Assembly: GCA_032358255.1 (NCBI GenBank)
Contig: JAULBX010027518.1
Location: 1 to 36,455 of the forward strand
Length of the DNA: 36,455 nt
Direction: 5' to 3'
From: Heterotrichella gracilis
Lineage: Eukaryota > Sar > Xanthophyceae > Tribonematales > Xanthonemataceae
Numbering within the stretch: the first letter of the stretch is position 1; each line of letters opens with the position of its first letter. This document shows positions 1 to 36,455 of this stretch, in pieces. Position numbers and translations under genes: made by a program. Under the pieces are notes generated by a model. That model made no database searches, had not been told where the DNA came from, and worked only from the letters and a program-made list of their open reading frames with translations.

Positions 1-446
1 GGTTTAAGGTTGCACGCCCTGCCGCGCCGCCCCCACTCATGCCGCCCAGCATCTGCTGCATGGCTGGCATCATCTGCAGGAAGGGCGGTAACGGTTTAGG
101 GTTTGTTTAGGGTTTGGGGTTTAAGGTTGCACGCCCTGCCGCGCCGCCCCCACTCATGCCGCCCAGCATCTGCTGCATGGCTGGCATCATCTGCAGGAAG
201 GGCGGTAACGGTTTAGGGTTTGTTTAGGGTTTGGGGTTTAAGGTTGCACGCCCTGCCGCGCCGCCCCCACTCATGCCGCCCAGCATCTGCTGCATGGCTG
301 GCATCATCTGCGGGGAGTGTGTTCAGGGTTTAGGCTTTCTTTAGGGTTTAGGGTTTACGGTTGCACGCCCTGATGCGCCGCCCCCCCCAACCATGCCGCC
401 CAGCATTTGCTGCATGGGGGCATCATCTGCGGAGAGTGTCGTAAGG
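1..446 (-). repeat. 117-bp tandem repeat, four copies, carrying the terminal BAG6-like exon
   Basis: Units begin at 1, 118, 235 and 352 on the plus strand. The first three are nearly identical and the fourth is diverged. On the minus strand each unit has a pyrimidine tract, an AG acceptor and about 50 coding bases (MMPAMQQMLGGMSGGG), then a CCCTAAA-type stretch. The coding piece matches the STI1-like exon at 1276-1118 in style. In the fourth copy a single-base loss breaks the frame. The period is a multiple of three, but the coding frame meets a TAA in the telomere-like part, so each copy needs splicing. Confidence -1.
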
Positions 447-3400
447 GTTTAGGGTCTGCTCAGGGTTGCAGGTTGGCTGACATTTTCTGCAGGCGGTGTG
501 GGACCCTGATGAACCCCCAACCCTAAACCCCGATCAAAAGTGGATAGAAAGAGCTGCTTGGCGCCGCATGTGCAAGACTGATTGCTAATCTGGCTGTATG
601 GCTGGAATATGCATGTGACTAAGTATATCGAATAGCCCAGCGAAGGTGATATTTGATGGTAGAGCAACCGCCATGATGGGTGGGCAATGCCTTCCAGGTG
701 TAATTCCCCGCCAAAGTTCAATACTCTCAATTTCTACAGGCTGCTGCTTTTTGACCCAACCCCATCCCCCCATCGCATGGGAGGCACTGGAACCCCCGCC
801 TCCCCCTCTTAACGGCCGGGAGGGGAGAGGCAGGGGAGTGATGTGATGGGCACTGCCCGTCATACGCACATGTGGCATACAGCTGCCCAGATCAGGCATG
901 GGTGGTTTAGGTTTAGGTTCAGGGTTTAGGGTTTAGGGCATGGGTGGACCCTAAACCCTAACCGCTAAACGTCGTACTGACCTGTGACATAAGGCTGCCC
1001 AGATCAGGCATGGGTGGTTTAGATTTAGTTTTAGGTTCAGGGTATAGGTTTAGGTTCAGGGTATAGGTTTAGGGCATGGGTGGACCCTAAACCCTAACCG
1101 CTACACGTCGTACTGACCTGTGACACGAGGCTGCCCAGGTCCGGCATGGGCGAGCGCTCCCCAGTACCAGCACCCCTTGCCGACCCACCAGATGCGCCCC
1201 CGCCAAACAGCGACTCTGCCATCTGCTGCATGGCGGGTGAGTTGGCCATCTGCATCATCGCCGGCGACTGCGCCAACTGCGGAAAAAATCCCAGCAAATG
1301 TAAATAAAACGTGAATTGTTTTCAAATGACATACAAAACGCTCGATGGGAAGCAAGCATACGTAAAGCCGCTGACTTGTCAAGTGCAGAATGCGGGTGAA
1401 TCAGCAGCACAGCAGATGATGCATGGGTGGAAGCAAAGAGGTGTATTCCTAGACACAAGCCAGGCCCATGCACACCCACCTGTGACACGACAGACATGAG
1501 GTTGCTCCCCCCGCCAGACCCCCCTGGGTTGCCCCCGCCCATCAGGGATGCCATCATGTCCCCCAGGGAATTGGCACCACCCCCAGCCTGGCCCTGGGAT
1601 CCCAGGGATGCCATCATGTCCCCGAGGGGGTTGGCCCCACCCCCAGGTGTGCGCTGGGATCCCAGGCGAGTCAAGGGGCCCGGGCTGGGGGTGGCTCGAT
1701 CTGTGGTGGTAGGGGGTACCGGGGAGGGGGTGGTGGCTGCGGCCTGAGCAAGGGAGGGCCCAGCAACATCTGCAGGGGGGAACACCACTGCGAGATTAGC
1801 AATAAACCCAGCGCATGTGACAGATGGTGGTCCCCCCATTGGGGGCCAGGGCACACATTCCAGGATGCATCCCTCTGGGGGCACGCATGAAACTGTAACT
1901 AACTGGGCCCAAGCACAGTTATGAAGGTAGCCACCTGCAGGGCTTCCCACTTCTGCAAATCTATAATCCATATCCAGGTGCCATAAAGCACCCCAACCGA
2001 TGGAACAGTCACAAATGCACTCCGCAGCAGCAAGCCTGGTTAGGGTTTAGGGTGTAAGGCGGTTCACAGAGTGGTAGGCTACGTACCAGACTGTGCTGTG
2101 CAGCTGCTTTTCTTGCCCTTGGGCTTCGGAAGGCCCGCCCCACCCAGACCCTTACCCAGCCCCGCGCCAGGGCCAGCTTGCGCAGGGGTGCTCGTTCCCT
2201 CCGCGGTCTTAGGTGCGGGTGGGGATGCGGATGTGGATGGGGATGCCTGCGCCTGCCTGTTAGTGCTGCTTCCCTGACGTGGTGCCGGGCGCAGACCCAG
2301 GCCCAGTCCCTGTGGCGCTGCACCACTGGAGGGGGCTGGGGTGGGTGCGGGCTGTGCAGCTGCGGGTGTGGCTGTGGGTGCGGGTGCGGCGGGTGGCGCA
2401 GCGGTGGCTGCGGGTGGTGGTGCGGTGGTGGTGGCTGGGGCCGCTGTGGTGGCTGGTGTGGTGGGGGTGGTGGCTGGTTGTGGCTGTGGCTGTGCGGGCT
2501 GCTGCTGCTGTGGAGGCTGCCCCAGGGCTCCAAGCAGCGACTGCAGGATTGCCTGCAGCATGTGCGGTTGCTTGGTAAACCTTGGCTTCTCAGCTACACG
2601 TGATGCTTAACTACATCGAGTACCCATGAAGTGATTAACATTGCAGCTGCCATGGAGAGCATGTGGAATTGGGTGAGACCCAGTGACGCATTGCAGATTA
2701 AACAGCTAAGGTGAAGTTGCAGCCAAGTTATTTGTCAGGCGATAACCATTAAGAACATCACTTAATTGCAATAATCAGTGGGGTGCGCATGCTGTGAGAT
2801 GTGCACGTACTGCTCCGCCATTCTGGTGGCTTGGTCAACAATTACTGCTCAGCCTTGACATGCTTACTGCCATCAGGCATGTGTGAAGTTATACTTTGGT
2901 TAATGAAGCGGTGCAGGAACCATGGAGAGCATGTGTAAGTTGTGTGAGATCCAGTGATGCAGTGCAGATATTAGTTGAAGTGTGGCGTGTGCATGGCGTG
3001 GAGGTGCCAGCGTACCGCTCCGCCATCGTTGACCATGCTGCTCACATCAAAGTCGATCTAACCAATTAAAAAACATCAAATAGCTGCAATAATGAGTGTA
3101 TTGTGCACGTACCGCTCCGCCATCTTGGACCATGTTGCCCACATCGAAGTCGATCATGAATGCGGTGCCGTTTGCATCCTGGGTGCGCGTGATGCGCACG
3201 GGGCTGGATCCTGCATCGCCTGCAAGGACGAGTCCATGGTTGTTTAGGGTTTTACGGCTTAGAGTTCAAGGTTTGCAAGGACGATTCCATGGCTTTGTCA
3301 GAACAGGTGCAAGTGTGGGTAGTGGATCCCGTCCTAATGCATCATCAACTGCCCTGCGGTATGATCCTGCCGATCTTACAGAACAGATTGTGGTTCTGTT

Positions 3401-6400
3401 CCATCTGGTAAAGATAAATCCAGGTATTGACATCACTACATGAATTGATACAACAGCACTGCAATACCTGCGCCATTGGTCGGGTAACAAGCAGACATGT
3501 ATGTTCAACTTGCACATGGCAAGCCAAACAGCACTGCAATACCTGCGCCATTGGTCGGGTAACAAGCAGACATGTATGTTCAACTTGCACATGGCAAGCC
3601 AATTTGCAAGCAATCAAAACTTATTTGCTTGTATTTATACCTTCCCGATTGTCCATCGTTCCCCAATAAGAGTATACTGAAATGGTACAAGCAATGTCAG
3701 GACAGGGCTGCGGTGGCGCAAGTTTGTGCGCGGCCGATTGCCGACCTGTCTTATTTGCCAGAATTGCAAGTGATATAAATAATAATAAGCATACCTTGCG
3801 CACCAGCCGGCCCTCCCTGCTCCGCCCCCGGCTGCTGCTGAGGCCGCGGTGATGCAGGTGGGGGTGGACCCTCACCCCCAGGCGCGGCCGGAGGCTCCTG
3901 TGGTGCAGGCGCAGGCGCCGCAGCGGCTTCTGACAAGGGGATGCCATCCAGAACCTGCTGCACGTGGTCCGCCACCTGCTGCACCAGGGGGCGCAGCGCC
4001 TCGCCCATGGTGGGCGCGGGCTCGCCTGGCGGGGGCGGGGAGGGCAGGCGCGCAGACAGCATGTCTGCACAGCATGCGGGAAACATTTGTATGTGTGCGC
4101 ATTTAAAACAGCGGTGTCAGTGCGATGCAGTGATGGCAACACTTCTGCTGTGAACGTGGGGAGGGCAGGCGCGCGGACAGCATGTCTGCACAGCACGCGG
4201 CGAACGTTTGTAAGTAGGTATGTGGAAGTCCAACCAGGGGTGCCTGGATGATGCAGTGATGGCAACACTCATACTGTGAACTGCGCTTCAAGAGCCTTGC
4301 GTACACAAAATGATGCACAGCTGCAACCAAGCATCAGTGGACCTCAGCACCCCACCCCACCTTGTATGCCCTGGATGATGATGGGCGCACAGCGACAGTT
4401 TTGTATGCAAGGGTTATATTTTCTTCTTGTGTTCAGGGAAAACGGGAAAAGGAAAATTGAAATTCCCACCTTGAATGCCCTGTATGATGATGGGCGCGAT
4501 CTGGGACAGCGCCAAATTCACCAGTCCCACGATATGGGCCCCAGCCCCCGCGCCCGGCTGGCCCCCGCCACTGTCGCCCGCCTGGCCGGGACCCTGCGGC
4601 CCCATTTGCATCCCCATCATGGGCCCCATCATCCCCGCGAGCAGCGACTCCAGGCTGACCCCCTGCTCAGGCCCCGCCTGGCCCTCCGTCATCACCATCG
4701 GTATGGTTATCGACCTGCCGCCGTTAGGCAAGGCACCTACGGTTATGCCTCCCGGGAGGAGCCCAGGGGTAGGCAGCGTGCTGGGCTGCCCCCCTTGGCC
4801 CGCCGCCTGCCCCTGTGCGGCGCTCGCTAGCATGGTCCCCAGTTGCTGCTGGAGCTGCTCCACGTTCAGGGGGCCCAGGACTGTGGTTTGGATGCTGCCC
4901 TGCACGGGCATGCCGGCGCCACCGACGCCCGGCATGACAAACCCGCCTGGAGAGCACAGAGTAGGAAGTCGAGGATTTACTACAAGCAGCTGGCAAGTAT
5001 TTGCGCTGTAGAGGCATGCCCCTGTGCACAGTTGGAGATGCAATGCAGCGCCGCCCCGGTATGGGCATAGCAATGCCCCTGTCCTGACTATGGGAAAGTG
5101 ACCCAGTATGGATTGTGGTAATGAAAATGGTCTTGAATGTCAACATTTAGTTGCGAAGCTAAAATGCAATGCAGCACTGTTCCCCAATTCAAGACGAATT
5201 GACGCTCCATTGCAGAATGAATGCACATGTGTGCAAGACCTTTATGACAATGCAGTCCGCATGATTCTGACAGCAGCAGTCCTGTCATGGAAAGGACGCA
5301 TACGGGCTTTGCGGTGAGGCCGCACCTTGCATACCGGGCACATTGCCGCCGCCGACTCCAGGCATGCCGGGACCGATGCCTGTCCCAAAGGCAACACCGT
5401 TTGGCATTGCTCCCTGTGGCGCGTTGGGTCCCTCCTGCGGCTGCCCACCCCCCGCCTGCTGCGCCTCCCGTGCCGCTTGCACAGCACGCGCAAAGTCCAG
5501 GTGCTCTGCAGTAGGGTAGTACCATTGATACAGTCATGCTTCTTTGTTTATACAAAAGAGAGAAAGCCCAGATGCTCTGTGTTCGCAGTGAATATAGAAA
5601 ATCAGGAAGATACAGAGAATATAAAGTAAAACAATGACTAGGAGAACATAATAGGGAAGGGCGGGTGATGAGCATGGTGGTGACATGAACACTTGCTGAC
5701 TCACATACAGTACACAGTACACAGTAACCATTTTTGCTGACAACAAGCAGTACATAAATCTACGTGCCAGATCAGCCCTGATGGTGGTCCCGGTAATTGA
5801 TCTGGGAAGAAATAAACATAATTTCTGCTTCTATAGTGCATGTCCTGCGATTGGGGGGCAAATGAGTTGCAAGTGCCTATCATACACACCTTGGGTGGGC
5901 ATGTACCCAGGCTGTGCAATGGCCAGGGGTCGGGGCCGCCCCATCAACGCCATCCCCAACATGGTGGCTGCACGCGACAGCTCCAGGCTCATCAGGCCCA
6001 GCGCATGCAGGCTGTTGGCCACGCCATGCAAGCCAGCCTGCATGGCGCAAACAGATGTACCATGTCAATAACACTCTCGCCTGCAGGGTTTTGTTTAACC
6101 TCTGTGAAAGTTGCTGTGCGTATGCCACCCTTCTTTACCACAACGTGGGCACTGAGCCCTACACTTTGAACCCTCCTGGTGCCAAGCTCAGCGGCATGCA
6201 AGCACGTTGAGCAGACAGGCAAGAGGCATGTGGTGTCCGAGACTGCATCTGCAATGATAAATGATCCTTAAGCAGAATGAAATCATGTTTTGGCATCATT
6301 TGTAAATGTAGGTTTACTATACATACATTACTGTAGCTGAACTTTACGTACACTTACGCATTATAATCCACGTACCATGATCACCGTCCTGGTAGCCGCG

Positions 6401-8526
6401 TCCGGCATGGTGGTGCGCTGCAGCAGCGGCAGCTGCTGGTTCACCTGGGGCGCAAAGCTGTCCTGCACCCACTCCAGCATGGCGCGCATCAGCTGCGCAA
6501 CGGCCATGCCCGCCACGTGCACCGCCACCTCGGTGGGCGGAGCCTGTGCGCCGCTTGCAGCGCCGGATGGAGGCGGTGCGCCACTTGCGGTTGCGCCTGC
6601 GGCTGGTTGTTCTGGTTCGGGCTGTGCGGGTGCCACTTGGTTCAGGTAGGTACGCAGGGCGCTGGGCAGCTGCGCCTGGTCGAGCACCAGGCGGGCGGCG
6701 CCTGCCAGGCGGCTGCGCTGCTGCTCGGTCAGCTCTGCAGCGCATGTCAGGGGCGCGAGGTTCTGTCAGTTCTGCAGCGCATTTCAGTGGCATGGGATGG
6801 GATGCGGGTGTGTTTCGATTCTGCAGAGGCATGGCAGCGGCATGAGATGAGATGAGATGAGATACAGTGTCTTCTCATTCTGCAGAGCATGCCAGTGGCA
6901 TGAGATGGGGCGCCTGCTGGTCCCTTACCCAATCTCAGCACAGTGCCAAAAGCAAAGTAGGGAATGGCTACAGGTGAGATGACTTGCACAGGTTGGCGGC
7001 GTTGTAATATGGGGCAGGATGGCATACCTGCTGGACGGATTTATTGCAGAACTATTTTAACGTGGGTGGGAAAGCACCTACCTTGGGTTGGTTGCCCTGG
7101 CTGGAGCCCTGGCAGTGGGTTTGTGGGCAACTCGCCACGCGACAGCTGCTGCAAGAAGATGGACGCAGCGGGCAGGGAGTGCCTTGACACTGGCAGCCTC
7201 TGAGCCTGCTGCTGTTGCCCCTGCTGTCCCTGCTGGTCGAACTGAAACCCGCCCTGTGGCTGACCTCCTGGACCACGCATTGCACTCTGCAGGATGGTTT
7301 GCGCAATCTGCTGACCCAGCTGCTGGCCCGCCTGTGCTCCAGCAGGGTTCTGCTGCGTGTTGTTGGCAGACGCGGGATCTGCGCAAGGCCATGGGGGAAC
7401 ATGGGTCGAGATGGGATGAGCGAAATGCCCACAGGATGCATACTGGGTCCTGTCATTGGCGTTTGCGGATGGTTCTGACAGCTTACCTGTTGTTGTCCTC
7501 ACTTGGACGGAGATGGGAGCCCCGCCCCCAGTCCCCAAGCCTCCAAGCATGCTTGATACAGCCTGCAGTAAGCAGCGGTATAGGGCTCAATTTGTGTACC
7601 GTATTCTGACGTTTCTACACTACATGTCTCATAAGCACATGGTTTGTGTACTTGCTCAAGGTTTTGAACCATGCATCCCCTGATCACAGAAGGTGGTGCT
7701 GCCAAGCAGGTGTTCGAGTGGCACACAGCCCCACCTGTTGCAAGTCTTGCATGTTGCTGCCGTCAAGTTGTATAGGTATGGTGAAAGACTGGACAGTAGC
7801 TTGCACGTTGGCCCCAATTGTTGCGCCATGCATCCCACCAGCACCCATACCCGCTGCCCCTTGGGACGCTGCAAAAACAGGCACTGTGGTCACATGCCAC
7901 CCAATGTCATGCCCACTCATCAAGCGTGCATGCGACCAGGCTTGTGTATGTGATGCGTCAGGTGCATATGCAAAGGCAGACTTGGGTGGACTGGTGATAG
8001 GACATGATGCAGCAACACAGGTGCATCCGTGCAGGAAAATCTCACAACCATGTCTGCCCTCTGTCTCGCAATCCAGGTGCAGATCCTTACCAGTGGGCTG
8101 AGGAGGCGGTGGCCCTCCGGTCATCTTTTCTATCAAGTGGATGACGCTTCCCTCTTTCACCCCTGCAGCACAGATTCTAGTGACCACATGGCATGGCATG
8201 GGTGGAGGTGCAAGATGATGTACCAACACCGTGATGTGCTCACCATAGCTGGACAACGTTTCTTCGTCTGAAAGGACTCTGCCCTTGTGAACGAGCCGCT
8301 GTCTTACACTTGGAACGGCAGCTGCACTCTCCAGCATGCGCTTCAGCTCCCCCACAGTGAACTGCACACAGCAACGTTCAGCCAACCCAACAAAACGTAA
8401 CATGCATGCTTTACAAAGACCCAGCAACCGTACCTGGGACTCTACCGAGAGGTCGTATATGCTGTTGGACAGTGTTTTCACTTTGATGCTTATTCTGGAA
8501 TCTTCGTTGGTACTTGGCCCCTCCAT
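1..8526 (-). CDS. BAG6: BAG6/Scythe-like protein with N-terminal ubiquitin-like domain (3' end beyond the window)
   Basis: Start ATG is at 8526. Exons, all phase-compatible: 8526-8434, 8361-8244, 8162-8091, 7868-7735, 7562-7487, 7378-7082, 6734-6376, 6037-5890, 5505-5326, 4946-4470, 4064-3795, 3219-3113, 2552-2087, 1769-1480, 1276-1118, then a repeated terminal exon below 446. They give about 1082 residues before that repeat, close to animal BAG6. Exons 1-3 make a full ubiquitin-like domain (about residues 12-90, with ISIKVKTLSN, QRLVHKGRVL and SVIHLIEK), the hallmark of BAG6. The rest is Q/P/G/A-rich with helical blocks (ELTEQQRSRLAGAARLVLD). Near the end lie STI1/ubiquilin-like segments (SPAMMQMANSPAMQQM). 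BAG6 holds hydrophobic clients in cytosol and nucleus for tail-anchored insertion or degradation. The animal BAG domain is not recognisable. Exon 5 uses donor GTAAGC, not the earlier GTGAGG, because only that keeps frame. The family call is solid; exact internal exon ends are inferred. Confidence -1.
875..1150 (-). repeat. Three graded copies of the BAG6-like exon 15 3' end with donor
   Basis: The end of the exon at 1276-1118 (PMPDLGSLVSQ then GTCAGTACG) recurs at about 989-1015 (PMPDLGSLMSQ then GTCAGTACG) and, more decayed, at about 875-905 (PMPDLGSCMPH then GTGCGTATG). The copies are separated by CCCTAAACCCTAACCGC and TTTAGGTTCAGGG stretches. All lie on the intron side of the exon. Confidence -1.
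2803..3158 (-). repeat. Graded copies of the BAG6-like exon 12 3' end with donor
   Basis: The exon at 3219-3113 ends with IDFDVGNMVQDGGA and GTACGTGC. A second copy at 3057-3016 encodes IDFDVSSMVNDGGA and is followed by GTACGCTG. A third, shorter remnant near 2820-2803 keeps GGCGGAGCA plus GTACGTGC. The middle copy has an AG preceded by a T-run at its 5' side and could be spliced as its own exon. Confidence -1.
3454..3603. repeat. Perfect 75-bp tandem duplication in a BAG6-like intron
   Basis: Two units, 3454-3528 and 3529-3603, appear identical by eye, so this duplication is recent. It lies between exons 4064-3795 and 3219-3113. It contains no recognisable exon piece or telomere-like motif, unlike the other duplications in the window. 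Confidence -1.
4037..4281 (-). repeat. 121-bp duplication spanning the acceptor of BAG6-like exon 11
   Basis: The acceptor and first codons (DMLSARLPS) of the exon starting at 4064 are repeated 121 bases upstream in the intron, at about 4157-4200. The following intron sequence is repeated too: GATGCAGTGATGGCAACAC occurs in both units. The AG acceptor is retained in the copy. Confidence -1.
4355..4499 (-). repeat. 109-bp duplication spanning the donor of BAG6-like exon 10
   Basis: The exon 4946-4470 ends in GCATTCAAG followed by GTGGGAAT. A copy at about 4390-4356 carries the same 30 or so bases with GCATACAAG then GTGGGGTG. It lies on the intron side, and the donor GT is kept. Confidence -1.
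6729..6910 (-). repeat. Repeated acceptor unit upstream of BAG6-like exon 7
   Basis: Four copies of a CTGCAG-centred unit occur at about 6735, 6772, 6821 and 6880 on the plus strand. The nearest two duplicate the acceptor plus the first codons (ELTE) of the exon starting at 6734. The outer two share only the acceptor and a GCATGAGATG-type tail. Several alternative 3' splice sites are therefore available. Confidence -1.
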
Positions 8527-9139
8527 GGTGGCTTCTCTCACACACGGCAAGCACAAAGTACAAAAGTGGAGATAGACAAAGTATTCTTTGGAAAGCAACA
8601 ACAGACAAACGTATTCAAAACGCTAACTGGGTCGGCAACAAACGAGGACTGGGTACCCAGGTGGCAAGGATCTTTGCTGTCTTACGAAAGGGTCGTGGTT
8701 CAGTTCACAAACATGTCAGCGCATTGACGAGGTGCCACCGGGCTCTCTTCTGCAACGAGGGCTATTTGGGCCGTGCGAAGTCACTTGACTCTTGAAGATC
8801 GAAGTCACTCGTGAGCCTCCGAGGCTCACTGAGTGCCCGGCAACGTTTGTTACTCGTGTACCCTAGTAGGGTCTAGTCACCATGTGCACACTCAGTGCAT
8901 GCATCATATGCGGCATAAAGTTGGTGCCAGTTATTAATACTGTGGAGTGTGGAGTCGCTGATCAGTCTGTCCGTAACCCAAACAGCGTGAAGACAACACC
9001 ACAATTGGATTGGCTTACGCCTTTTCAAACGGTGATAGTGTGCCCACTAGATTTCTGCTTTTTTCGAGCTTTCCCAACATTGTTGCAGAGGCCGAGGAAC
9101 GCCAGCAAGAACCTCTCCACTTTTTGCTCAAGTGCAACG
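8527..9139. promoter_or_regulatory. Divergent intergenic region between the BAG6-like gene and the small plus-strand gene
   Basis: These 613 bases separate two start codons facing away from each other and should hold both promoters. I see no clear TATA box. The region contains a perfect 9-bp inverted repeat at 8811-8829 and a short direct repeat (CGAAGTCACT near 8776 and 8799). The frame of the plus-strand gene is open back to 8882, so part of this may be coding or 5' UTR. Confidence -1.
8811..8829. promoter_or_regulatory. Perfect inverted repeat in a divergent promoter region
   Basis: GTGAGCCTC and GAGGCTCAC flank a single C. The symmetry and the position between two divergent starts suggest a possible binding site for a dimeric regulator. 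There is no further support from this sequence alone. Confidence -1.
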
Positions 9140-11663: not shown

Positions 11664-14119
11664 TCACATGCTACCAGCTGTATGATAGCACGCCTGCAGC
11701 GCTTTCCGCAGCGCCTCCAGCTCGCTGAACACGTTGTCAGTGGCCATGCCCTGCGGGTCAATGAGCACAATCCCGCTCCCCGCTGACCCGCTGTACGCGT
11801 TCTTACTGCACAGAAGCTGCACCTCCAGCACCCGCCACACCAGCGGGGAGTCCTCGTCAATACTTGTGTCGGCAGCAGGTGCCTGTGAGGAGTGCAGAGT
11901 CAGCTACTTAAATGTTGTTTCATATGTACATTATTACTTTTGATTTATTAAATATTTGAGGGGGAATGCATGCAATCACGAAAACGTGTTATATAGCTGA
12001 CTCTGCACTCTGCCCAGGCGCCCGCTATTCTTGCTAGCAGAGTGTAGTGTCAGCTACTCAGTACATTCTTTTCCATGATTCCATGCATTCCCGCTCAAAA
12101 GCAAAAATGGCAGTAAACCCCTGTACTTACTGCGCCAGGCAGGCAACGGGATACCTTTGTCGAGAGGTTGACCTTGATTTAAGCTTCAGGGTTTAAGAAT
12201 TAGGGTCTAGGCAGGGCATACCTTTGTCGAGAGGTAGTCCGCCTGCAGCACGGACCGCCGCCTGCCCAGGTTGATCTTGGTAGCCAGCACCATGGGCGCA
12301 TGGTGCAGGCAGGACACCACCAGGCTGCTGTTGTTCTCAACCATGGCCTTGAGGTGCCTGGACCTGGGGCGCTCATACAGCGTGGCAAGGAGCTTTGCAT
12401 CGGGGAGCTGCCCCGGTACCCGCTCGTGCTTGAGCCGGTAGATCTCCCACAGGGAAAGCTTGTCGAGGCGGGGCCGGGCGCTGTGCATGCGTGCCGCGGT
12501 GTTGAACTCGCTGTTGGTGAAAAGGAAGGCTATCTCCTCCTCAACCATTGGCCGCTTCCTCTCCCACTGTGCACCAAAGAAGTGATTTTAACAAATGTTG
12601 CAGTTGCCATTTTCACACTTTCCAATTGTACATTTAACAAATATACACCTTCAACAAAATTTGCACTTCTGATTTTACACTTCACAATGTACTGTTTCAA
12701 TGAATTTCGTGCTTTTTGCCGCGGTGTTGAACTCGCTGTTGGTGAACAGGAAGGCCACCTCCTCCTCAACCATTGGCCGCTTCCGCTCCCACTGTGCACA
12801 GGTGACAGTGATATATACATGCGTGTCCCCGGAGGGATGCATCCACAAATCCCCAAAACATGCCATCAAATTGTGCTATGCATGTACTAGTACTGCCCTC
12901 AAAAAATGAAAGTCCCATATGCAAATGTCCATGCAGATCATCATTTGACACTTCCACCCCAATTCCTGCCATTATGCGACCTGATAGCATGTCCAATGAT
13001 GCGAGTGACCACCAGCTCCCCAAAGCATGCACCAACACCTCACCTTGGCTGCGTACAACGCCTCGTGCACCACCTCAATCAGGAACTCATTGAAGCGCTG
13101 GAACAGCTGGCAGTCATGCACCGGCCGCTTGTGGTCGGTGTACTTGAGAAGGAGCGTGGCGTAGCTGGGCCCCAGCTTGCGCCGGTGCACCATTGCTGCC
13201 GCGCGCAGCACATCGAGCTTTTCCTGGATCACCTCTGGCTGCATGCCCTCCAACCGTTCCTGTTGCGTAAGAGTTACAATCACCACCCGTGTGACATCCG
13301 CACCATGTGGCCCGCATGAGTTCGTGTGAGGCATAGTGAATTGTGAGGCATGCTGGTGATGCATAAAAGCGGACATTTAACAAAAACAAAACACCCAGTA
13401 GTATAAAATGTAAATGCATCAATGCGTTAAAAGTAATGTATCTTGCCAACGCATTTTGATGCAAGACACAGTCAATGAATACGCAATCCCTCAGTACTTC
13501 AAATTTCAATCAGGCAAAAAAGTCGGCATACCCTTCCCAATTCAGACTTACATGTTTTGCTCGCTCCACAGCCAGCAGGATGGCTTCGTACTGGAACCAG
13601 GAAATAAAATAGGCCGTGAGGTTGTACACCATATCGTGCGCTTCTTTGGATGCAATGATCGCACTGAATGCTGGCATGGCAGTGAGGTTGCAAAACTTGT
13701 TGCTGGCCTTGGCTTTCGCGGCATCTAGCAAAAAGCGTGCACCCGAGAAGGTTGCCGTCTCAAGCTTGGTTGCCAGCCTGTCCATGCATGGGTGCAAAGG
13801 CAGCGTCAGACGCACGCCGGCCAAAACAAGATGTGAAACGGTGTGGCATGAACCTGCCATCTGGATGCATATAATAGATTACTGTGGCCATCCAATGGAT
13901 TCCTACTGCTCATCCAATGGATTAATATGACCGGGATGGATGTGCCTGGCTTACTATGACCGGGAATGGAATGCACTGCACTCACTTGCCGTCTAATAGT
14001 GTGGACTTCCTTGCCACAGACGCCTTGCGCAACCTATTTGCCTGCTGCCGTTGTGTGAGCACTGCATCTTCATGGATGTTCTCCAGCAAAGGAGTGGCAA
14101 ACTCCACCTTGTTCTGCAT
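11664..14119 (-). CDS. PPP1R36-like protein (candidate protein phosphatase 1 regulatory subunit 36)
   Basis: Exons: 14119-13986, 13777-13552, 13259-13044, 12566-12222 and 11882-11664 (stop TGA), all phase-compatible, giving 379 residues. There are no membrane segments; it is mostly helical and moderately basic. The order of features resembles PPP1R36 as I remember it: a helical block with SWFQYEAILLAVERAKH, then LGPSYATLLLKY, a FQRFNEFLIEVV block, then IAFLFTNSEFNTAARMH, followed by a tail. PPP1R36 is known mainly from ciliated lineages, which would suit a flagellate alga. The gene model is good; the family name is a memory-based match and should be treated as a hypothesis. The start is the first ATG after an in-frame TAG. 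The open frame reaches eight codons further upstream, so an extra 5' exon is possible. Both ends of exon 4 are partly duplicated in the neighbouring introns. Confidence -1.
12142..12240 (-). repeat. Duplicated 3' end and donor of PPP1R36-like exon 4
   Basis: The exon end (LSTK then GTATGCCC) at 12240-12213 recurs 67 bases downstream at 12170-12142 as LSTK then GTATCCCG. A TTTAAG..TAGGGTCTAGG telomere-like remnant lies between the copies. Confidence -1.
12493..12800 (-). repeat. 225-bp-spaced duplication of the 5' part of PPP1R36-like exon 4
   Basis: Bases 12718-12800 repeat 12493-12575 with few changes. They include the acceptor (GTGCACAG) and about 25 codons, from WERKRPMVEEE to FTNSEFNTAA, with one conservative change (I to V). 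The copy then runs into unrelated sequence with no obvious donor. It could act as an alternative acceptor or be a decaying exon copy. Confidence -1.
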
Positions 14120-19993: not shown

Positions 19994-21095
19994 CCCCCCT
20001 CCGTCGCCACTGCATGGCGCCTGGATGCTTGCGAAGTGGTGAGGATCTTCTATTTTGGCAGCCTAGAGTTGATGCCATCCCGTCCCAAAACTGGAATTCT
20101 GGTGGGCGGGTCGCTGGTGAAGCAAGGGAACCCCAGCACAGGAGTGTGCAAATGCTGTCCTGGAGTGATCATCATGGAGCTTGCTGCCCTGGTACCTGTT
20201 GGGCCCCTCAATTTGTACTGTCATATTTACTGTTATATTACTGCTCTGTATTGGTAATGATAACAGCACATTTCCGGCTGAATGCTGGGGTTCTCTGTTG
20301 CACACTGTCAACAGTCTGGGCTTTCACTTTTTGAGCCTGTTTGTAACTTCCAATACTCTGCGAGACAAACAATAATAAGGATGCCGTTTAATCCACTTGA
20401 AGAGCATCTCTCTGTTGGCCATATTCTATTGTGAAGATACTTGGCATGCAGCCGCAGGAGTCAGTGCCGCGCTCCACAATGGTCGCCTTGCGGCTTGTGG
20501 AGCGAATTTAACTTTGTTTCTTAGCAATTCAAGGGCCGTTGGGATTTCAAGCAGTCGCACACTGCATCTGTTGCATGTCTAATCTGGAACCTACAGGTTA
20601 GATCGGATCGGATGGGTGTGTCTCACTCCGAGACTTTTTTCGCTGGCCTTGAGGCACTCGTTGCTTAGGGTTAAAGGTTTCACGTACGTTCTGCTGGGCG
20701 TAAGCTGTGCAGTATGGCCGTGTAACAGCTGGTGTCATATCTGTGGACCTCGCCGTGAGGTAAAACTTCACTTTACCATGTTGGCAATACACAGTTGTGG
20801 CCCTCTACAGTTCAGGGTACGCTATTACTTGTCAGTCAGGGTCAAGAGCGATGCATGCATGCATAAACATGTGCGAATGTGGCATTCGAGCTGGTTTCAG
20901 CTGCTACCGTCCGGCTTTAACGTAGCATCAAATAGTATATGAACAGGCTTACGTTGACTTGTAACCCACGACCTCGTTTGGAACCTGACGGTGTTTTGGA
21001 AGGGTGGTGGGCAATGGTGAGGGTAGCAGAATGGCACGAGCTGAACGTTTAATGAGACGTTGGAAATACCACTTGCGGAGCGCAGCGAGTTAGGA
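19994..21095. other. Intergenic region holding a decayed copy of the IGPS last exon
   Basis: This is IGPS 3' flank and the promoter side of the next gene. At 20097-20165 a diverged copy of the end of IGPS exon 8 (ILVGGSLVKQGNPSTGV) lies after the true stop codon, so the duplication process also reached the 3' end. No separate gene is convincing here. Confidence -1.
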
Positions 21096-24000
21096 ATGTC
21101 ACGGTCACCTGGCAACCTTCCACCTCAAGGATGCTGCCACCTCCCTATTTTACTGGCTGCCATGGTCTCCCTCCTCACTTGCCAAGCCATTGAGCTCAAC
21201 GAAGGCAACCTGGGGGATGTTGTCCTGGCAGTGGCTGGCAACACGGCCCAGGTCGTTTTCTCAGTGGTAGAGTTTGAACAGGGGACCAATGGGACCAGCC
21301 CTCCACACTCGTATGGCTCCCATGCAGCGATGCTGCGAAACCTGATGGCCAGCCTGCATGGGGTAGGCAGGCTGCGCAACTTCATGCTCATCAGTAGCCC
21401 AGAGAGCTGCCACCAGCTGCGCCAACTGCACGATGTGACACCTTGCTTTGATGACAAGGTGGCCCCAAGGCATACAGCAGCCTACACAAGGTAGGCAACG
21501 GCTTGGGCTGGAACAGGTGTGCCATCAACTGGCGCACGCTATGGGCTTGCCGTGTTTTTGGGTGGTGTCTTTATGGCGCAGCATAGATTTGCACTGCCGT
21601 GGCTGTAGTGTGACACCTCTTGGGGAGGGTTCCGAGCTGGGTGTGCCAAAGTGTTGCTAAGCTCGGCGTAGTCGCTGTAGTGCCAAGATTGCAATGCATA
21701 CAAGAACAATGCATACAAGAACAATATACACTGTTGCTTGAATGCAAGTACTAGTATCTTATTGTGAACCTAGCGCTTCTCCTCAAGGGCCATACAAGCT
21801 TCTCGTTGATGTGCACACACCCCTGTGTAGCGCCGCATAAAGTTGGCTGTCTGTAAGTGCCCCCTCAATAGTACTGCTTCCTAAACCCTAAGCCCTAAAC
21901 CCTTAGCCCTAAACGCTAAACCCTGGCATATACCACATCCAGCTGGCTGATACAGAATCCAACTCCACATTGCCCCATCCCCCCTCAGGGGATTATGCAT
22001 AATATAACAAAAATATAATAATAACATTGTCCCATTCCCCCTTCAGGCCGGTGGTCCGGGACACCACGCTGTTCCACAAGCACTGGTGGGCCCGCAAGCT
22101 GCTGGACTTCAATGTCAGTGTGATGTATGTGGACATGGACCTGGTATTCCTGAAGGATCCCTGGGAGCACCTGGATCCCTGGTATGATGCGGAGGGGATG
22201 AGCGACTACATGTCGCCGGAAATACCCTCGAGAAGGGTATGTAGTGCAGCCCCGGATTGGGGGTATAGGGTTAGGGGTTAGGGTTTGGCAAGTACGGCAC
22301 GTGGTCACGCTCTGTCGGGATAGCCCAATAGGATTGGGCCCACTGGGTGATGCCACGAGCTATTGTCACTCAGCTTCATGTTACCAGGGTTCAGGGTGCA
22401 GGGTGTGGTCATTTGGGACACCGCGGTGTCAGCCTGTTCCGCGGAATACATGTTGATGCATGGTGGAAAATCGATTGACCACCTTCTGTGAGGAATCCCT
22501 TGTGTGATTGATCATAGTAACATCTTTTTATGAGGACGGAGATGGGTGGCGTGAACACATTCTGGCTGTTTGTGCTTGTTAACCGCTGACCTTCTAGCGC
22601 TTTTACCTAGTGTAACATATCGGTGCATGTGTTACAAGAATTCTCAACCCAGTACGCCCTTTTTGCTGACTGTTAGTTAGTTAGTTAGTTGCTGACTGTT
22701 ACACCTACTGAACATGCGGTGCTCGACACTCCTTGCCCCTCCTCACAGGACATCACTCTCTGGAACTTTACCAACCCCATGCAGGGTATGTACTACAACG
22801 GTCTGCGTAACGGCAGCGCTGGAGGTAAGGCAAACCTTGGCACATGAAATTTCAACTGTGTGCTGGCTGTGCGCATCCTCCTTGTGCCACTTGCTTGCTA
22901 GTCTGGCTACTTGTGGGTGGATTCACTTCATCTAACTTGATCTTCTTTGAGCACTTGATCTACTTTGATCCACTTGATCTACCAGAGGCAAGCCAGATGC
23001 CATGGGCCATCTCAGGCTTTATTGCGTCACCACTGCAGCACATGGACATTGAAATCATACTTAAATTATAATATGCAAACCACTACAAATTTTGCTAGAG
23101 TATGTTACTGTTGTGTATGTTGATGAAAACTCTACATCAGATTTCAGTGCACAAAGCATACCCTTAGCCACACAGCATTCAGTATTGCACACGCGGGACC
23201 AAACAGCGTGTTCCTGGGCACCCCTCAACGAGATACCACTTGACTAAATGCTCTATGTTTCAGTGCAAGTCACAATACCCCGCGGGTACGTGTATCATTC
23301 ACAAACATGCATTGCGCACAGCTTACGCAAAGAGCCCTGAGGTACCTGATCAATCATGCCGACAATAAATACTTTGTGCAGGCTGGACATTGTACAATTC
23401 AAGGCCCTCTCCGACTAATGTGCGGGGGATTGCCTACCGCCACAGCACTGGACTGGTAGCCCTAAGGTGACTGGGTTTGGGTTTAGGGTATAGGATTTAG
23501 GGTACTGGACTGGTAGCCCTAAGGTGACTGGGTTTAGGGTTTACGGTTTAGGGTTCAGGGTACTGGACTGGTAGCCCTAAGGTCACTGCGTTTAGGGTTT
23601 AGGGTTTAGGGTTTAGGGTACTAGACTGGTAGCCCTAAGGTGACTGGGTTTAGGGTTTAGGGTACTGGACTGGTAGCCCTGAGGTGACGGGGGTCTTCGC
23701 ATGTCATCTCTGTTACAGTTGTCGTACGGAAAAATGAAGCAGTGTGTATGGTATACCATGGCAATGCCGTTCATTTTTGTTTTCCCTGCCCTTAAATATG
23801 CCTATGGACATAAAATCAGATGGCATTAAAGACCAGTCAAAAGCAGTCAAAAGCGGCAGGCAAAACGAATCAAAACAACGTCCAAAAGCCTCCAAATACC
23901 CCAAAGATGCACATATGCGATTCTGTGCAGCATTCTTTGCTGCTGTGTTTAATTGCATGGTTGGAATTATGGTCCTCGGCTGCAGAACGGAATATCACAT

Positions 24001-27791: not shown

Positions 27792-29731
27792 TCAAGACCA
27801 CCCACTCACACGCCTATCCAGCACAAGCACCGCTTCAGCTGCTTGCCGGTCTACAGGGCCAGAACCCGGTTCCAGAGATTTTAGAGTCTTTACTACGGTC
27901 TCCACCAGCTGTGCCGACGCGCGCATACCGCTGCCATCGGATCTCCCCGTAGTATTTACCTCTGGCGCCGTGTCAACACGCCCAAACTGCTTCTGACCCT
28001 CCCCAAGGGTCTCCCCATGGCCGGTTTCGCTTTTTGACATGACACCTTGCTCCTTCCCTTGCCACGTCTCATCTGTGGCGATCCCTGCCGATGGAAACCC
28101 GGCTGCATGCAGTGGGGATTCCGAGTCCCCAATGCACAGCTGCGCGTCCCCGGGGCAGCTGCCTCGCGCGACCACGAGGGTAATGTTGGGGTTTCGGGAG
28201 TATGAATAAACGTGCACCAACCCGCCCCCCTCCGCCCGCTGCCAATAGAAGGAGTGTTTCCGCTCCTGCCGGGGGCGCCCCCGGAACATGTAGCCTTCGA
28301 ACCGCTGGTTGGGCAGGTGGGCGGGGACCAGTTGCGACATGGTGGCCTCCGTGGCATCCAGGTTCAATGCGGCTTGGTGTGGCATCAGGACTTGGATGAT
28401 GTAGCCCGCCGTGAGCACCAGTGTGAAGTTATGGGCTGGGTCGTGGAGCACAAACCTGGTCAGGAGCAAAACGAGGAGTAGAAAGAGTAGAAATGGAACG
28501 AAAATAGTGAAATGACTGAAGCCAATGTCAGAATCATTGACATTAAATCATTACGAGAAATTGCCAATTTGCTTTTGGCGACATTAAATTATCTACTATT
28601 ATTGAACACAACATTACTATAGCATTCATTTTGGGCGGAGTTTGAAGCAGCCCATCAGAATGCTAAAGGAAAGGAAACACTGTGCAATTCTCCATGTTCC
28701 CAGCACTGAATGCAGTGGGAAGCCGCGCTAGCTCTAGGGTTTAAATCCCACCCCTTACACCCTAAACACAGAAAGCGGGGGGGAGCTGCGCTAGCTCTAG
28801 GGTTTACATCCCAACCCTTGCACCGTAAACATAGAAAGCGGGGGGGAGCTGCCCTAGCTCTAGCCTTTAAACCCTGAACCCTACACCCTAAACACAGAAA
28901 GCATGGAGGAGCTGCTCTAGACTCTATTTCCAATTGCACCGCATATTCCTCAGCAAGCAATGGGAACAAAAGAAAGGGATGCGCCACCAGCTAATGCCCC
29001 ACCTCTCATGAAGAGGTGTGGTGCGGCGGCGTACGCTGGATGCATGGCATGGATTGCATCCCTGTTGGCCCTCCCCGGCATGATCTGCAGGTAACCAGAA
29101 TGACGTGTAAACAGGATATACAAATGAGATACACAGCACAGCATGGTAGTTAACCAACACATAATAAATGTTTATACCTGAAGAACTTTTTAGGAAAAGA
29201 CCAAGAAACAAAGAACAGTAAAATGAGCCAATGTCGGCTTGGAACGCTTTTCTTTGCAATAAAAATTGGGAAAACATCGATACAATCTGGATGCATCCAA
29301 GGTCACAATTGTAATTGTGCAAAATCATCAATGCATCTACCTGTAGGCGCGTGTGGGTGACGTGGTGGAGGGAGCACAGGGGCCCGTGGGAGGCCACATA
29401 CCCTTCTATTAACCCACTCAAATCCCCGCTCAAGCCCACCGCATGCATGCACCTGGTGTGCTCAAACACCGCCCCAGTGGCATGTATGCAGTCCTGAAAA
29501 TACAGGTCGCTGGGTTGCCGGCCAGGCATATCTGTTCTGCATTTCCCAGCGGCTATGAGGGAAGCTAGGCCTGCTCCGATTACCATGCCGGCGCCACCAG
29601 CTATCCCTCGGTGCAGACGCCGTATCTGGGCCGATTCCTCGGGAATGAGCCCAAAACCAGGTAGTCCCAGAGGTTGTCCCGCTCCAGCACGGCAATCATG
29701 TTTTTGGGCCACCACAGCGTATCGTCATCTC
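27792..29731 (-). CDS. Fringe/DUF604-like (GT31-type) glycosyltransferase, 5'-incomplete and frame-broken; possible pseudogene
   Basis: Three exons are recognised: 29731-29341, 29084-29003 and 28455-27792 (stop). The first carries the metal-binding GDDDTLWWPKNM, then DYLVLG, IAGGAGMVIGAGL and the SLHHVTHTR end of the fringe fold. The second has PGRANRDAIHAMHPAY. The third has LHDPAHNFTLVL and GYIIQVLMP, the C-terminal beta part of DUF604 proteins, followed by a 100-residue polar tail. Enzymes of this fold add galactose or a related sugar in the Golgi. Problems: between 29641 and 29665 the frame shifts as if one base were missing (next to TTTT and GGG runs). Exon 29084-29003 ends in phase 1 while the next acceptor needs phase 2. 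The N-terminal Rossmann half and any signal anchor were not found upstream. It may be a decaying gene, or assembly errors plus missed exons. Confidence -1.
28721..28922. repeat. 64-bp tandem repeat, about three copies, in a DUF604-like intron
   Basis: Units begin near 28721, 28785 and 28849, with a partial start near 28908. Each has GCTGCGCTAGCTCTAGGG, a TTTAAATCCC/CCCTAAACAC telomere-like part and GAAAGCGGGGGGGAGCT. No exon copy was recognised in it. Confidence -1.
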
Positions 29732-31600: not shown

Positions 31601-34032
31601 TCATGTGGCTTTTATTGCTGCGCATTGCCTCTGGCGCCACCATGCCGCGAAAAATGCACCCTGGGATGGCTGCGCCATCTTTATAGGATGGATAACAAAA
31701 ACCCCATCAATGAGCCCCTCCCCTTGCGGCAGCATATACTTTTCTGGGTTGTCCACCGCATCCTCCCGGGCCCTCGCGCCCTTGAAGATGGGATCGCTGG
31801 GTGAGTATGGTTTCCTTGACACATGCACCTTCCATAGATACGCTGCTTTAAAAAACTGCTGGTCACTGTCTGAGTCCAGGAGCAGGTGGAGGATCTGTGG
31901 GATCGCCGCCTCATGGAAAACACGGTGGCTGGCAAAGTGGAGTGCCAAGGTGGCAAACTGCGCCGCAAAGCGCCGGGGGACGTAGAAAGCATCAGTCCAG
32001 GCCGCGGAGGCAAACCCTGCGTGCTTGGTATGGGATCCCGTAGTCCCCAGCAGCTTCTGCGCATGCGCCTTCCTGCCGGCATCACCGGGGAGCGATTGCA
32101 TGACCCGGACCAACGTGTGCGCTAGCGTGGCGTCCATGTCGGCCGTGGCCAGCTTTACTTTTTTCCAGTCCCAGGTGCTAATGGTGGTGGGATCGGTGCC
32201 TTGATTTGCAGAGATGTCGCTCACGTTGGCATGGAACCACACCTTGTCAATATCCGCCTGCTGCAGCCAGCAAGGGTCGAACACTGCGTCGTCTCCGACC
32301 ATAAAGTAGCCGCCTGCCCCGCGTTCAGTGACCTCCATGCCTGCCTCCGTGTCCAACTTCACCACCTCGCCGAAGCATTTGTGCATTAACTCACCGCCCA
32401 CCGCATGGCACTGGTACCACTGTATCCCCACAAGCTCCTTGATGGCCGCATTGGGCAGCAAGAGGCCTGTGCAATGCATAGAAATAGGGGTGAAAATGTC
32501 GCAGTGATATAGGGGCATATTTCTAGAAAACGAAAGAATAAATATACTCGGAAATATCCCCCCGAGCTCCTTGGTGGCCGCAAGGAGTAGGAGGCCTGCG
32601 CAATGTGACATGGTCAACTGAAGTGCACTCTCATTCTAGAACTGAAACCACCTAAATAATCTGACCCGGCTCGCACAGCGCAGAATATAATGGGATGCAC
32701 AAAGTAAAATGCTTTTGTATGTCTAACAATTGGCAAAATGCATAGAAACAGGGGTAGAAATATAGCAGGATTATTAGGCCATTTTTCAGGCAAAAACGTG
32801 TGCAGCACACAACGTGATAACATCAATGAGGATGTTCACTTGCAAAGTGCATTTGCATTTGTCAATTGGAACCATCTCAACAGGCCCCCAAAGCACAAGT
32901 TTGAGTGGAAAATCATTTTTACTGAATTCATAGTTACGCAATCACGCATATTACACGCTTTTTACCAAAGGAAACTAGCAGTTCTTCACAGGAGATATGT
33001 TGCGACCTTTGTACTTCACTATAACTTAACTCTTTATTAACTGCAATCAAGGCAGCATATACATATATGGAATATTCTCGGCAAGTGAGTCACGCAGCTC
33101 ATGGCTTTGCCATGTAATTCACAGGCTAGTCACATTTCCACCAACTGAAATGGTCAACTGGCGCATTCCAATTGACATGATTGGAATTATGGATGATTGG
33201 AATGATCGGAATTATGCCAGCTGTGTAGCTGGTTATTGGATATATACCCAGCTGTGTACCTGGTTTTTGAATACATGTAGATATATGTACATATGTATCG
33301 TGCGATGAGCACACCGCATCCCACCTGTGAAGATGACACTCTGAAACAGGTCTCCGTAGCATTCATACAACTGGCGCACAACAAGCTCCATGCCCACAAA
33401 GCCCTTGTTGATCATCACAATCAGAGTGATTGGCAAGGCATGTCCGCATTGAGCGTTGCCTCCGCAGGCACTGGAGGCACCGGAGTTACCGCCACCTGCT
33501 GCCAATTAACGGTGAGTACCCCCCAGTCACGCCACTACCGTGCGTGTCACAGATATTTCAGATGGCTTGGTGCACACTCTTTGAAAGCATGCATGGGTGC
33601 TTGGAGCAAGAACAGGAATTGACAATAATGCCCTACATGTAATACAGCGCAGCAAGTTTTACAAACATCTGTTTCAACTATATCGATTGTCCACATTGTG
33701 AAATGACCACACGCATGGTCGGTAGCTGGAATATGCAGGGTAAATTATCCTTGCCTAGGGTGTGTACAGTGGCTTACGCTTACATTCTGGACTTTCTACA
33801 GCATGCCTTTGCTTCCGTGGCCCATCACCTGCGCCCCAGCCACCTGTAGGAATAAGTTCTTGTTAATGTCTTGTTTGCAATCATCTGCCTGCACTACTGA
33901 TTGCATCTATTGCAGGGATTCCAAATATGTGACACGTAACACACAATACGCGGAGATGTGCGAATACGTATGTTTTATTCTCAGATACTCTCATATACCC
34001 GTATATATTGGTTAGTAAACATATATTTAAGC

Positions 34033-34068
<36 letters not shown>

Positions 34069-35914: not shown

Positions 35915-36455
35915 GGCAGGACTTCTTGGTCATTCAAACTGCCAAAGGACTTTCGCATGCATGCGTGCACACACATATGTGCGGCACGCATGCGCACAGA
36001 GTAGGCTAGGGTTGGGTCTACTATATGCCCAATACGCCTAGCGCAGTGCGTTTTCCTGTTGACCAGTGCCACAACTAGGCACAAAGTGTGTGCATCTTTT
36101 TGTGTGACCGCTTAGTGACTGGTCACGAAGTGGTGGCGGTGACAACCAGCCAAGTTTATGATAAAATAAAGTTTGTCACCATACCTTGAGCACAAGTCAT
36201 CAAAACACTCTGAACACAACCACTAACAATATAGCATCGATCATAACCAGCCACAGCCCATCATAACTTGGTCTGGTTGTGGCCAGCCCAGATTTACCAT
36301 TTGGACTTTGAGTCTGATTTTATATTTTATTTACTTTTATGTACAATATCTGACAATCAGTGTGTGAGGTACTTGAACAAGTGCACAAGTTGTTTTTGCG
36401 CAAATTATTAGGGGTCAGGAATTCAACCGCAAAGTTTATGATGTACAGTGAAGTG
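35915..36455. promoter_or_regulatory. 5' flank of the lectin-glycosyltransferase gene
   Basis: This is upstream of the minus-strand start codon and should contain its promoter and 5' UTR. It includes GCATGCATGCGTGCACACAC near 35957 and repeated AACCAGCC motifs (about 36144 and 36247). I see no further gene. Confidence -1.

What the first reader, a model, noticed from the sequence alone, without database searches (positions are those of the whole stretch)
1..36455. Widespread tandem duplication across exon-intron boundaries
In at least five genes, both strands, pieces of exon ends together with their splice site recur in the adjoining intron. 3'-end copies lie downstream and 5'-end copies upstream. 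Cases: BAG6-like boundaries at 1118, 3113, 4064, 4470 and 6734; PPP1R36-like exon 4 at both ends; most IGPS exons; GT77-like exon 4; lectin-transferase exon 5. Copy number is one to four, divergence is graded, and GT or AG is usually kept. Coding duplications are normally rare and whole-exon; this density of partial, splice-site-spanning copies looks like an active local process that enlarges introns and creates competing splice sites.
Basis: seen in the sequence. Interest (0 to 1): 0.87.

Follow-up and report, generated by a model that had tools for sequence, protein, structure and literature searches.

The report
Exon-end copies around telomere-like inserts
In parts of a green alga's genome, short stretches have been copied next to themselves, often around a scrap of chromosome-end repeat; inside genes the copies that remain are mostly pieces of exon ends sitting in the neighbouring intron, probably a by-product of DNA repair.

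Summary
The copies are real. In 29 loci (316 kb) of this 68.5 Mb, probably green-algal, genome, 37 of 542 tested splice boundaries have a copy of their exon end in the adjoining intron, against 0 of 542 in unrelated introns, 0 of 356 wrong-side, 1 of 166 exon interiors and 15 of 615 random intron 60-mers. They are patchy: 0 of 141 boundaries in 80 kb fetched later.

Much of the splice-site link is survivorship. A neutral model (uniform local tandem duplication, decay, conserved exon) predicts about 1.5-1.85-fold boundary excess; 2.8-fold is seen. Duplications elsewhere co-vary with those at boundaries. A real residue remains: young copies often have unduplicated spacers, and donor-end copies stop at the splice site more often than modelled.

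New: spacers are enriched in telomere motif TTTAGGG (10.4% against 2.2%), and 47 of 164 interstitial TTTAGGG runs are flanked by direct duplications, against 31 of 656 control points; like for like, 67 of 363 runs against 4-11% for ten control motifs. Best reading: break repair that duplicates the broken stretch and often inserts telomere-like DNA; genes keep copies that are spliced out.

The parts
1..467 (-). BAG6-like gene 3' region: 117-bp array of four copies including a predicted exon (107-190), with TTTAGGG runs between copies
   Evidence: TRF (period 117, 4.0 copies); self-BLAST; exon; telomere runs inside
858..1150 (-). Copies of the exon end at 1118; 982-1014 copies 1118-1150, with TTTAGGG-like runs between copies
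3011..3155 (-). Exon end at 3113 (3108-3155) and intronic copy 3011-3058, 90%
4037..4281 (-). Acceptor end at 4064 and upstream copy; a whole ~121-bp unit is alignable, intron part included
4356..4497 (-). Donor end at 4470 (4465-4497) and copy 4356-4388, 94%
6731..6909 (-). Acceptor region at 6734 with a short copy at 6768-6791 and a further repeat at 6878-6909
   Evidence: 24 nt, 88%
12148..12235 (-). Donor end of exon 12222-12566 (12215-12235) and copy 12148-12168 around a telomere-like run
12492..12799 (-). Upstream end of exon 12222-12566 and copy 12717-12799, 95%
15069..19993 (+). IGPS gene, 8 exons: 15069-15227, 15518-15576, 16088-16252, 16698-16818, 17443-17583, 18120-18257, 19114-19257, 19829-19993
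   Evidence: translation; Pfam PF00218 E=2.7e-76; alignment with 9 relatives, gap-free at the five junctions from exon 3 on
15833..16149 (+). Two upstream copies of the 5' end of IGPS exon 3 (acceptor at 16088), CCCTAAA runs between
16200..16481 (+). IGPS exon 3 donor end and downstream copy, 90%; weak homology continues into the intron
16765..17024 (+). IGPS exon 4 donor end and downstream copy
17969..18141 (+). IGPS exon 6 acceptor end (18120) and upstream copy
18186..18832 (+). IGPS exon 6 donor end (18257) and four downstream copies; the first spacer (18261-18310) is telomere-like: exact motif over 56% of bases, within one mismatch 96%
18904..19179 (+). IGPS exon 7 acceptor end (19114) and upstream copy, 92%
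19193..19646 (+). IGPS exon 7 donor end (19257) and two downstream copies
19918..20166 (+). End of the IGPS coding region and a copy beyond the stop codon (no splice site involved)
23447..23692 (+). 58-bp array with TTTAGGG runs, downstream of the predicted GT77-like exons, outside predicted exons
28704..28926 (-). 63-bp array with CCCTAAA-like sequence in a predicted intron of the lectin-like gene
32423..32605 (-). Exon end near 32466 and intronic copy 32555-32605, 80%

Best explanation
The copies are scars of a local duplicating repair process that is active, or was recently, in parts of this genome. A stretch of roughly 30-160 bp is duplicated in direct orientation, usually at an offset of 60-240 bp, either head to tail or around a new spacer. 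The simplest route is a staggered break whose two ends are both filled in and then joined, with telomere-like TTTAGGG DNA (added by telomerase or captured) often placed between them. In genes such a duplication is tolerated when spacer and extra copy lie in what is spliced out, so the copied exon pieces that survive include an exon edge: the 3' exon end is copied downstream, the 5' end upstream. The copy then decays neutrally while the exon is held by selection, so the exon part stays recognisable after the intron part has faded. Shown: the copies, their direct orientation and side, the telomere association, the patchiness. Inferred: break repair, fill-in, and telomerase or fragment capture.
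For: Boundary copies 37/542 against 0/542 chance, wrong side 0/356, exon interior 1/166, random intron 15/615. Differences between exon and copy by codon position 31/631, 40/622, 94/621: near the 1:1:2 expected if the exon is constrained and the copy neutral. Uniform tandem duplication with decay gives an exon-end/random-intron ratio of 1.47-1.85. In 15 of 32 pairs the sequence beside exon and beside copy is still more alike than in any unrelated comparison; whole units align in several. Edge and non-edge clusters co-vary. 49 of 85 duplication clusters hold or adjoin a telomere run, 32.2 expected (p=0.001). Spacers hold the telomere motif over 10.4% of bases against 2.2% in same-locus noncoding sequence, p=0.0005, n=78; 6.6% against 2.1% in the 59 pairs whose copies lack the motif, 6.9% against 2.1% in 43 of these outside the window. 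47/164 interstitial TTTAGGG runs of 10 bp or more have direct flanking duplications against 31/656 control points; inverted 0/164. Like for like (runs of 7 bp or more): 67/363 (18.5%) against 3.8-10.6% for ten control heptamers; other microsatellites 5/89. 32 independent places: 12 with the motif only between two copies, 10 arrays, 10 with motif also outside. The last IGPS exon has a copy past the stop codon, where no splice site is involved.
Against: The neutral model does not cover everything. Edge to intron-only clusters are 55:6, model 2.9-3.65. Alignments stop within 12 nt of the splice site in 23 of 38 (15 of 18 donors, 8 of 20 acceptors, my count's rows); the donor-type model gives 48-59% at indel settings 0.2-0.3 but only 19-37% at 0.1, and 0.1 fits the scarcity of gaps in copies better (5 of 38 copies gapped; model 0.13-0.21 gaps per copy at 0.1, 0.31-0.43 at 0.2-0.3). 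Of 12 pairs with identity of 92.5% or more, 1 has a spacer of 20 nt or less (model 25-44%) and 8 stop within 12 nt (model 32-50%). Spacer homology is seen in 16 of 32 pairs at score 13 and in 25 of 78 by a stricter test, model 70-85%. The telomere link is significant in pairs with a coding copy (8.9% against 2.4%, p=0.0005, n=35) but not in the 24 without (3.2% against 1.6%, p=0.08). Across loci, telomere-run density outside duplications does not follow duplication density significantly (rho 0.31, p=0.10). The exon annotation comes from my own gene finder; only IGPS is checked by homology. No empty ancestral site was available, so the order of events and telomerase are inferred. The patchiness is unexplained.
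Confidence: 0.55

Rival explanations
1. A process aimed at splice sites: DNA or nascent RNA ending just outside the splice signals is copied back into the adjoining intron, for example by RNA-templated repair or by breaks set at exon edges.
For: 55 edge clusters to 6 intron-only; donor alignments stop within 12 nt in 15 of 18, above every model setting; donor-type identity falls from 86% at +1..6 to 53% at +7..12 and 40% at +13..20, while the exon part is 90%; young pairs with unduplicated spacers.
Against: No copy on the wrong side (0/356), which a free RNA template would allow; uniform breakpoints with decay reproduce much of the pattern; non-edge duplications co-vary; the IGPS coding end is copied without a splice site; residual homology beside the copies in 15 of 32 pairs, and donor-side intron identity stays at 44-48% out to +45, above the 21-25% of the outer exon flank.
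Confidence: 0.2
2. Ordinary minisatellite growth by replication slippage or unequal exchange; telomere-like words are merely part of some units.
For: 10 of 32 telomere-linked places are arrays and 10 more have the motif outside too; several window arrays; several pairs are whole tandem units.
Against: 22 of 32 places are two-copy, 12 of them with the motif only between the copies; other microsatellites and control motifs rarely have the flanking duplications.
Confidence: 0.16
3. The intronic copies are kept by selection as decoy splice sites or alternative exon ends.
For: GT/AG kept in 29 of 33 alignable copies; third-position excess of differences 2.65-fold, somewhat above the neutral 2.
Against: 29 of 33 is the neutral expectation at the observed divergence; 5 of 38 copies have gaps and one an apparent in-frame stop (L001 8250); offsets are multiples of three in 12 of 38, about one third (my count); IGPS copies change conserved residues (compare).
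Confidence: 0.05
4. Assembly artefact: two alleles or overlapping contigs placed in tandem.
For: One pair in L018 flanks a 100-N gap with 98.7% identical copies.
Against: No N in the window or in 27 of the 28 fetched loci counted; graded divergence with neutral-copy changes; four extra copies of one exon end; a DNA search with 18120-19257 finds no second IGPS locus in the assembly.
Confidence: 0.04

Closest known systems
Interstitial telomeric sequences inserted at double-strand breaks in mammals (PMC2246262; passages read)
   Same: Short telomere runs within unrelated sequence; some insertions come with target-site duplication (Table 1: 6 of 130 rodent, 4 of 25 primate loci).
   Different: Here direct flanking duplications accompany 47 of 164 runs, and copies often span exon edges; the empty site has not been seen.
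[quoted passage not shown] potato RdRp case, PMC4974935; passages read)
   Same: Tandem duplication across or near splice sites that can leave the protein intact because the extra part is spliced out.
   Different: No new intron is seen: existing introns gain a partial exon copy. In IGPS the copies lie inside the intron, not as its new ends.
Tandem duplications from paired nicks in plants (recalled, not read; one search found no paper in the library)
   Same: Fill-in of staggered ends gives direct duplications of tens of bp.
   Different: Experimental system; no telomere-like filler recalled.
Introner elements of algae (recalled)
   Same: Enlarge or create introns.
   Different: Introners are dispersed near-identical elements; these spacers and copies are local.

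Membership tests
Interstitial telomeric insertions at breaks | Motif equals the organism's telomere repeat | tested here: met
   Contig C70 begins with a CCCTAAA array, taken as a chromosome end; rotations of TTTAGGG occur 165-301 times in 236 kb against 22-47 for nine other heptamers
Interstitial telomeric insertions at breaks | Flank modification at the insertion, including target-site duplication | tested here: met
   47/164 runs with direct flanking duplication against 31/656 control points; 12 of 32 places with motif only between two copies
Interstitial telomeric insertions at breaks | Empty site in an ancestor or relative | not testable with these tools
   The own-genome tool states that G000 has no relatives here
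Interstitial telomeric insertions at breaks | Break end in register with the telomere repeat | not tested
   Too few clean cases here
Intron gain by tandem duplication | New intron lies between the two copies, using GT of one and AG of the other | tested here: not met
   IGPS copies lie inside introns, for example 18311-18385 in intron 18258-19113; looked at for this gene only
Introner elements | Near-identical copies dispersed in many introns | tested here: not met
   Cross-locus BLAST of 236 kb: 56 hits, 19 with telomere motif; most of the 25 best of the other 37 belong to one short repeat family. A sample only, not the genome
Whole-exon tandem duplication | Complete exon copied | tested here: not met
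   Copies reach 22-96 nt into one exon end in 37 of 38 alignments. Exceptions: L018 5187, where a whole predicted 57-nt exon is copied, and the window array at 1-467

The most novel reading that the evidence does not exclude
In this alga telomerase-linked repair of staggered breaks is a regular source of intron sequence. Each event duplicates tens of bp and lays telomere repeat between the copies, so introns grow by accumulating copies of their own exon edges, in some chromosomal regions far more than in others.
Probability: 0.3. Interest if true: 0.72.

Novelty: new variant of a known kind. Interest (0 to 1): 0.5.

Why it matters
It ties together two things usually studied apart: local duplications in genes and interstitial telomere repeats. 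If the link holds genome-wide, the source of much intron growth in this lineage becomes testable, and the dated copies give a natural record of how breaks were repaired. It also shows how survival and decay can make a general mutational background look as if it were aimed at splice sites.

Tried and rejected
Rejected: a dispersed introner or transposon as source of the spacers (sample of 236 kb). A second copy of IGPS as source (DNA search with 18120-19257 only; the copies change conserved residues). Frame-preserving copies (offsets a multiple of three in 12 of 38, my count). A strict 'copies end at the splice site' rule: residual homology and the decay simulations weaken it but do not remove it. 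The first gene-finder run collapsed into tiny exons and was discarded; one search used stronger penalties. One search's open-reading-frame lengths were not used. The random-intron control was redrawn between calls (11/312, 15/615, 16/534 without the window). Boundaries of introns under 150 nt and queries under 30 nt were left out. Hits within one array are not independent; the 47 telomere-run hits are 31-32 places by two ways of merging. The eight later loci were fetched after the first result and are not a designed hold-out. L025 and L026 (window neighbourhood) were left out of all counts. Simulation parameters were chosen by hand, not fitted.

Literature: ten searches, seen as listings, some capped (20 of 344, 12 of 237). 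None of the listed papers is, by title and abstract start, about exon-end copies around telomere repeats; the library holds open-licence papers only. PMC4974935 and PMC2246262: passages only.
Full report
WHAT THE WINDOW IS. The window is contig C501 of an unnamed 68.5 Mb assembly in 903 contigs. The telomere repeat appears to be TTTAGGG (contig C70 starts with a CCCTAAA array). The best-scoring relative of its IGPS protein is a two-domain Brassica protein; the named ones that follow are green algae such as Trebouxia, Coccomyxa, Chlorella, Apatococcus and Myrmecia (57-72% identity among the 30 best). So it is very likely a chlorophyte; the species was not identified. The IGPS gene gives a check of splice sites: eight exons join into 363 residues with a full Pfam IGPS domain, and the alignment with nine relatives is gap-free at the five junctions from exon 3 on. 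The start of exon 3 (16088) was chosen as the AG that gives the right frame.

THE OBSERVATION. Self-BLAST of the window finds 36 near pairs, all but two direct. Individual tests confirm the BAG6-like, PPP1R36-like and lectin-like cases and 8 of 14 IGPS splice boundaries, but not GT77 exon 4. I fetched 28 further 10-kb stretches and built a small gene finder. In all 29 loci, 18 of 269 donor ends and 19 of 273 acceptor ends match their own adjoining intron at score 40 or more. Chance (introns of other loci) is 0 of 542, the wrong-side intron 0 of 356, exon interiors 1 of 166, random intron 60-mers 15 of 615. Without the window it is 24 of 481. The last eight loci gave 0 of 141 boundaries and 0 of 147 random intron points. 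Their base composition is within the same range, so the process is patchy along the genome; a mixture of organisms is not indicated.

IS IT ABOUT SPLICE SITES? But a copy of coding sequence survives only if it includes an exon edge, and such copies stay detectable longer because the exon is conserved. The codon-position pattern (31/631, 40/622, 94/621 differences) fits a constrained exon and a neutral copy. Simulations with uniform breakpoints, 65-237 bp units, and indels in the intron only give ratios of 1.47-1.85 for exon ends to random intron points and 2.9-3.65 for edge to intron-only clusters. Observed are 2.8 and 55:6 (9.2), so an excess of about 1.5-1.9-fold and 2.5-3.2-fold is left. 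Alignments stop near the splice site partly because the intron part decays: in 15 of 32 pairs the sequence beside exon and copy is still more alike than any unrelated comparison, in some over the entire unit; by a stricter test in a wider set it is 25 of 78. The model expects more (70-85%). Young pairs have unduplicated spacers more often than modelled (1 of 12 with a spacer of 20 nt or less, model 25-44%). Donor copies stop within 12 nt in 15 of 18 (model 19-59% by indel setting), acceptor copies in 8 of 20. So part of the events are not plain head-to-tail duplications, and a preference for exon edges is not excluded. Against it: copies not touching exons are present too, 22 clusters outside predicted genes and 6 in introns, and their density follows that of edge copies across loci (rho 0.50, p=0.0095, n=26). 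The IGPS coding end is copied past its stop codon, with no splice site involved.

WHAT LIES BETWEEN THE COPIES. Spacers of 78 adjacent pairs carry TTTAGGG-type words over 10.4% of bases against 2.2% in noncoding windows of the same loci (p=0.0005). Restricting to 59 pairs whose copies lack the motif leaves 6.6% against 2.1% (p=0.0005), and 6.9% against 2.1% in the 43 of these outside the window. With a coding copy it is 8.9% against 2.4% (p=0.0005, n=35), without one 3.2% against 1.6% (p=0.08, n=24). Conversely, 47 of 164 noncoding telomere runs of 10 bp or more have direct duplications on both sides within 150 bp, against 31 of 656 control points; inverted ones 0 of 164 and 0 of 656. With runs of 7 bp counted, as for the controls, it is 67 of 363 (18.5%; inverted 1), against 3.8-10.6% for ten control heptamers; other microsatellites 5 of 89. 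The 47 reduce to 32 independent places: 12 with the motif only between two copies, 10 arrays, 10 with motif also outside. IGPS exon 6 shows it clearly: 72 nt of exon end plus GTG, a 50-bp telomere-like spacer, then the same 75 nt at 93%.

MECHANISM. Direct orientation, lengths of tens of bp, frequent unduplicated spacers and telomere motif in them fit a staggered break whose ends are both filled in and joined with filler. Mammalian interstitial telomere repeats arose at breaks, with target-site duplication in 6 of 130 rodent and 4 of 25 primate loci (PMC2246262, passages read). Telomerase itself is an inference here; capture of telomere fragments is equally possible. Tandem duplication without filler, or minisatellite growth, explains part of the cases.

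CONSEQUENCES. Introns with a copy are longer (median 464 against 337 nt), and introns in duplication-rich loci are longer than in poor ones (342 against 283 nt, p=0.0008); cause and effect are not separated. GT/AG in the copies is kept about as often as neutral decay predicts (29 of 33). Whether copies are ever spliced needs RNA.

VERDICT. A real, patchy class of local duplications seen in 24 of 29 loci (together); the splice-site link is in good part survivorship, with an unexplained residue; the link to interstitial telomere repeats is the new element and the most useful lead.

Noticed in passing
L021-L024, L027-L030 (contigs C46, C57, C35, C21, C13) against L001-L020: Local duplications are strongly patchy: 0 of 141 boundaries in the later loci; cluster counts overdispersed over 29 loci (p=0.0003). 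Base composition is within the same range.
   Followed up: partly
window 27472-27527; L001 2953-3047; L003 1329-1412; L005 9177-9287; L013 8791-8860; L014 939-1034; L016 9185-9240: A short dispersed repeat family (about 50-110 bp, up to 98% identical between loci over its longer matches), either orientation, unrelated to the exon-end copies.
   Followed up: no
L018 4476-5255: A 100-N assembly gap flanked by copies about 98-99% identical; probably an unresolved tandem repeat in the assembly.
   Followed up: partly
window 11955-12099: Imperfect palindrome (about 70% identity to its own reverse complement) in a predicted intron of the PPP1R36-like gene.
   Followed up: no
window 3452-3602: A perfect 75-bp tandem duplication in a predicted intron of the BAG6-like gene, evidently recent.
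   Followed up: no
offsets of near pairs, 29 loci: Copy offsets pile up at 60-139 and 160-239 bp, with a dip at 140-159 and a sharp fall beyond 240; arrays contribute multiples; cause unknown.
   Followed up: partly
29 loci: Telomere-motif runs avoid predicted coding sequence (31 of 453 runs start in it, against 21% coding).
   Followed up: partly
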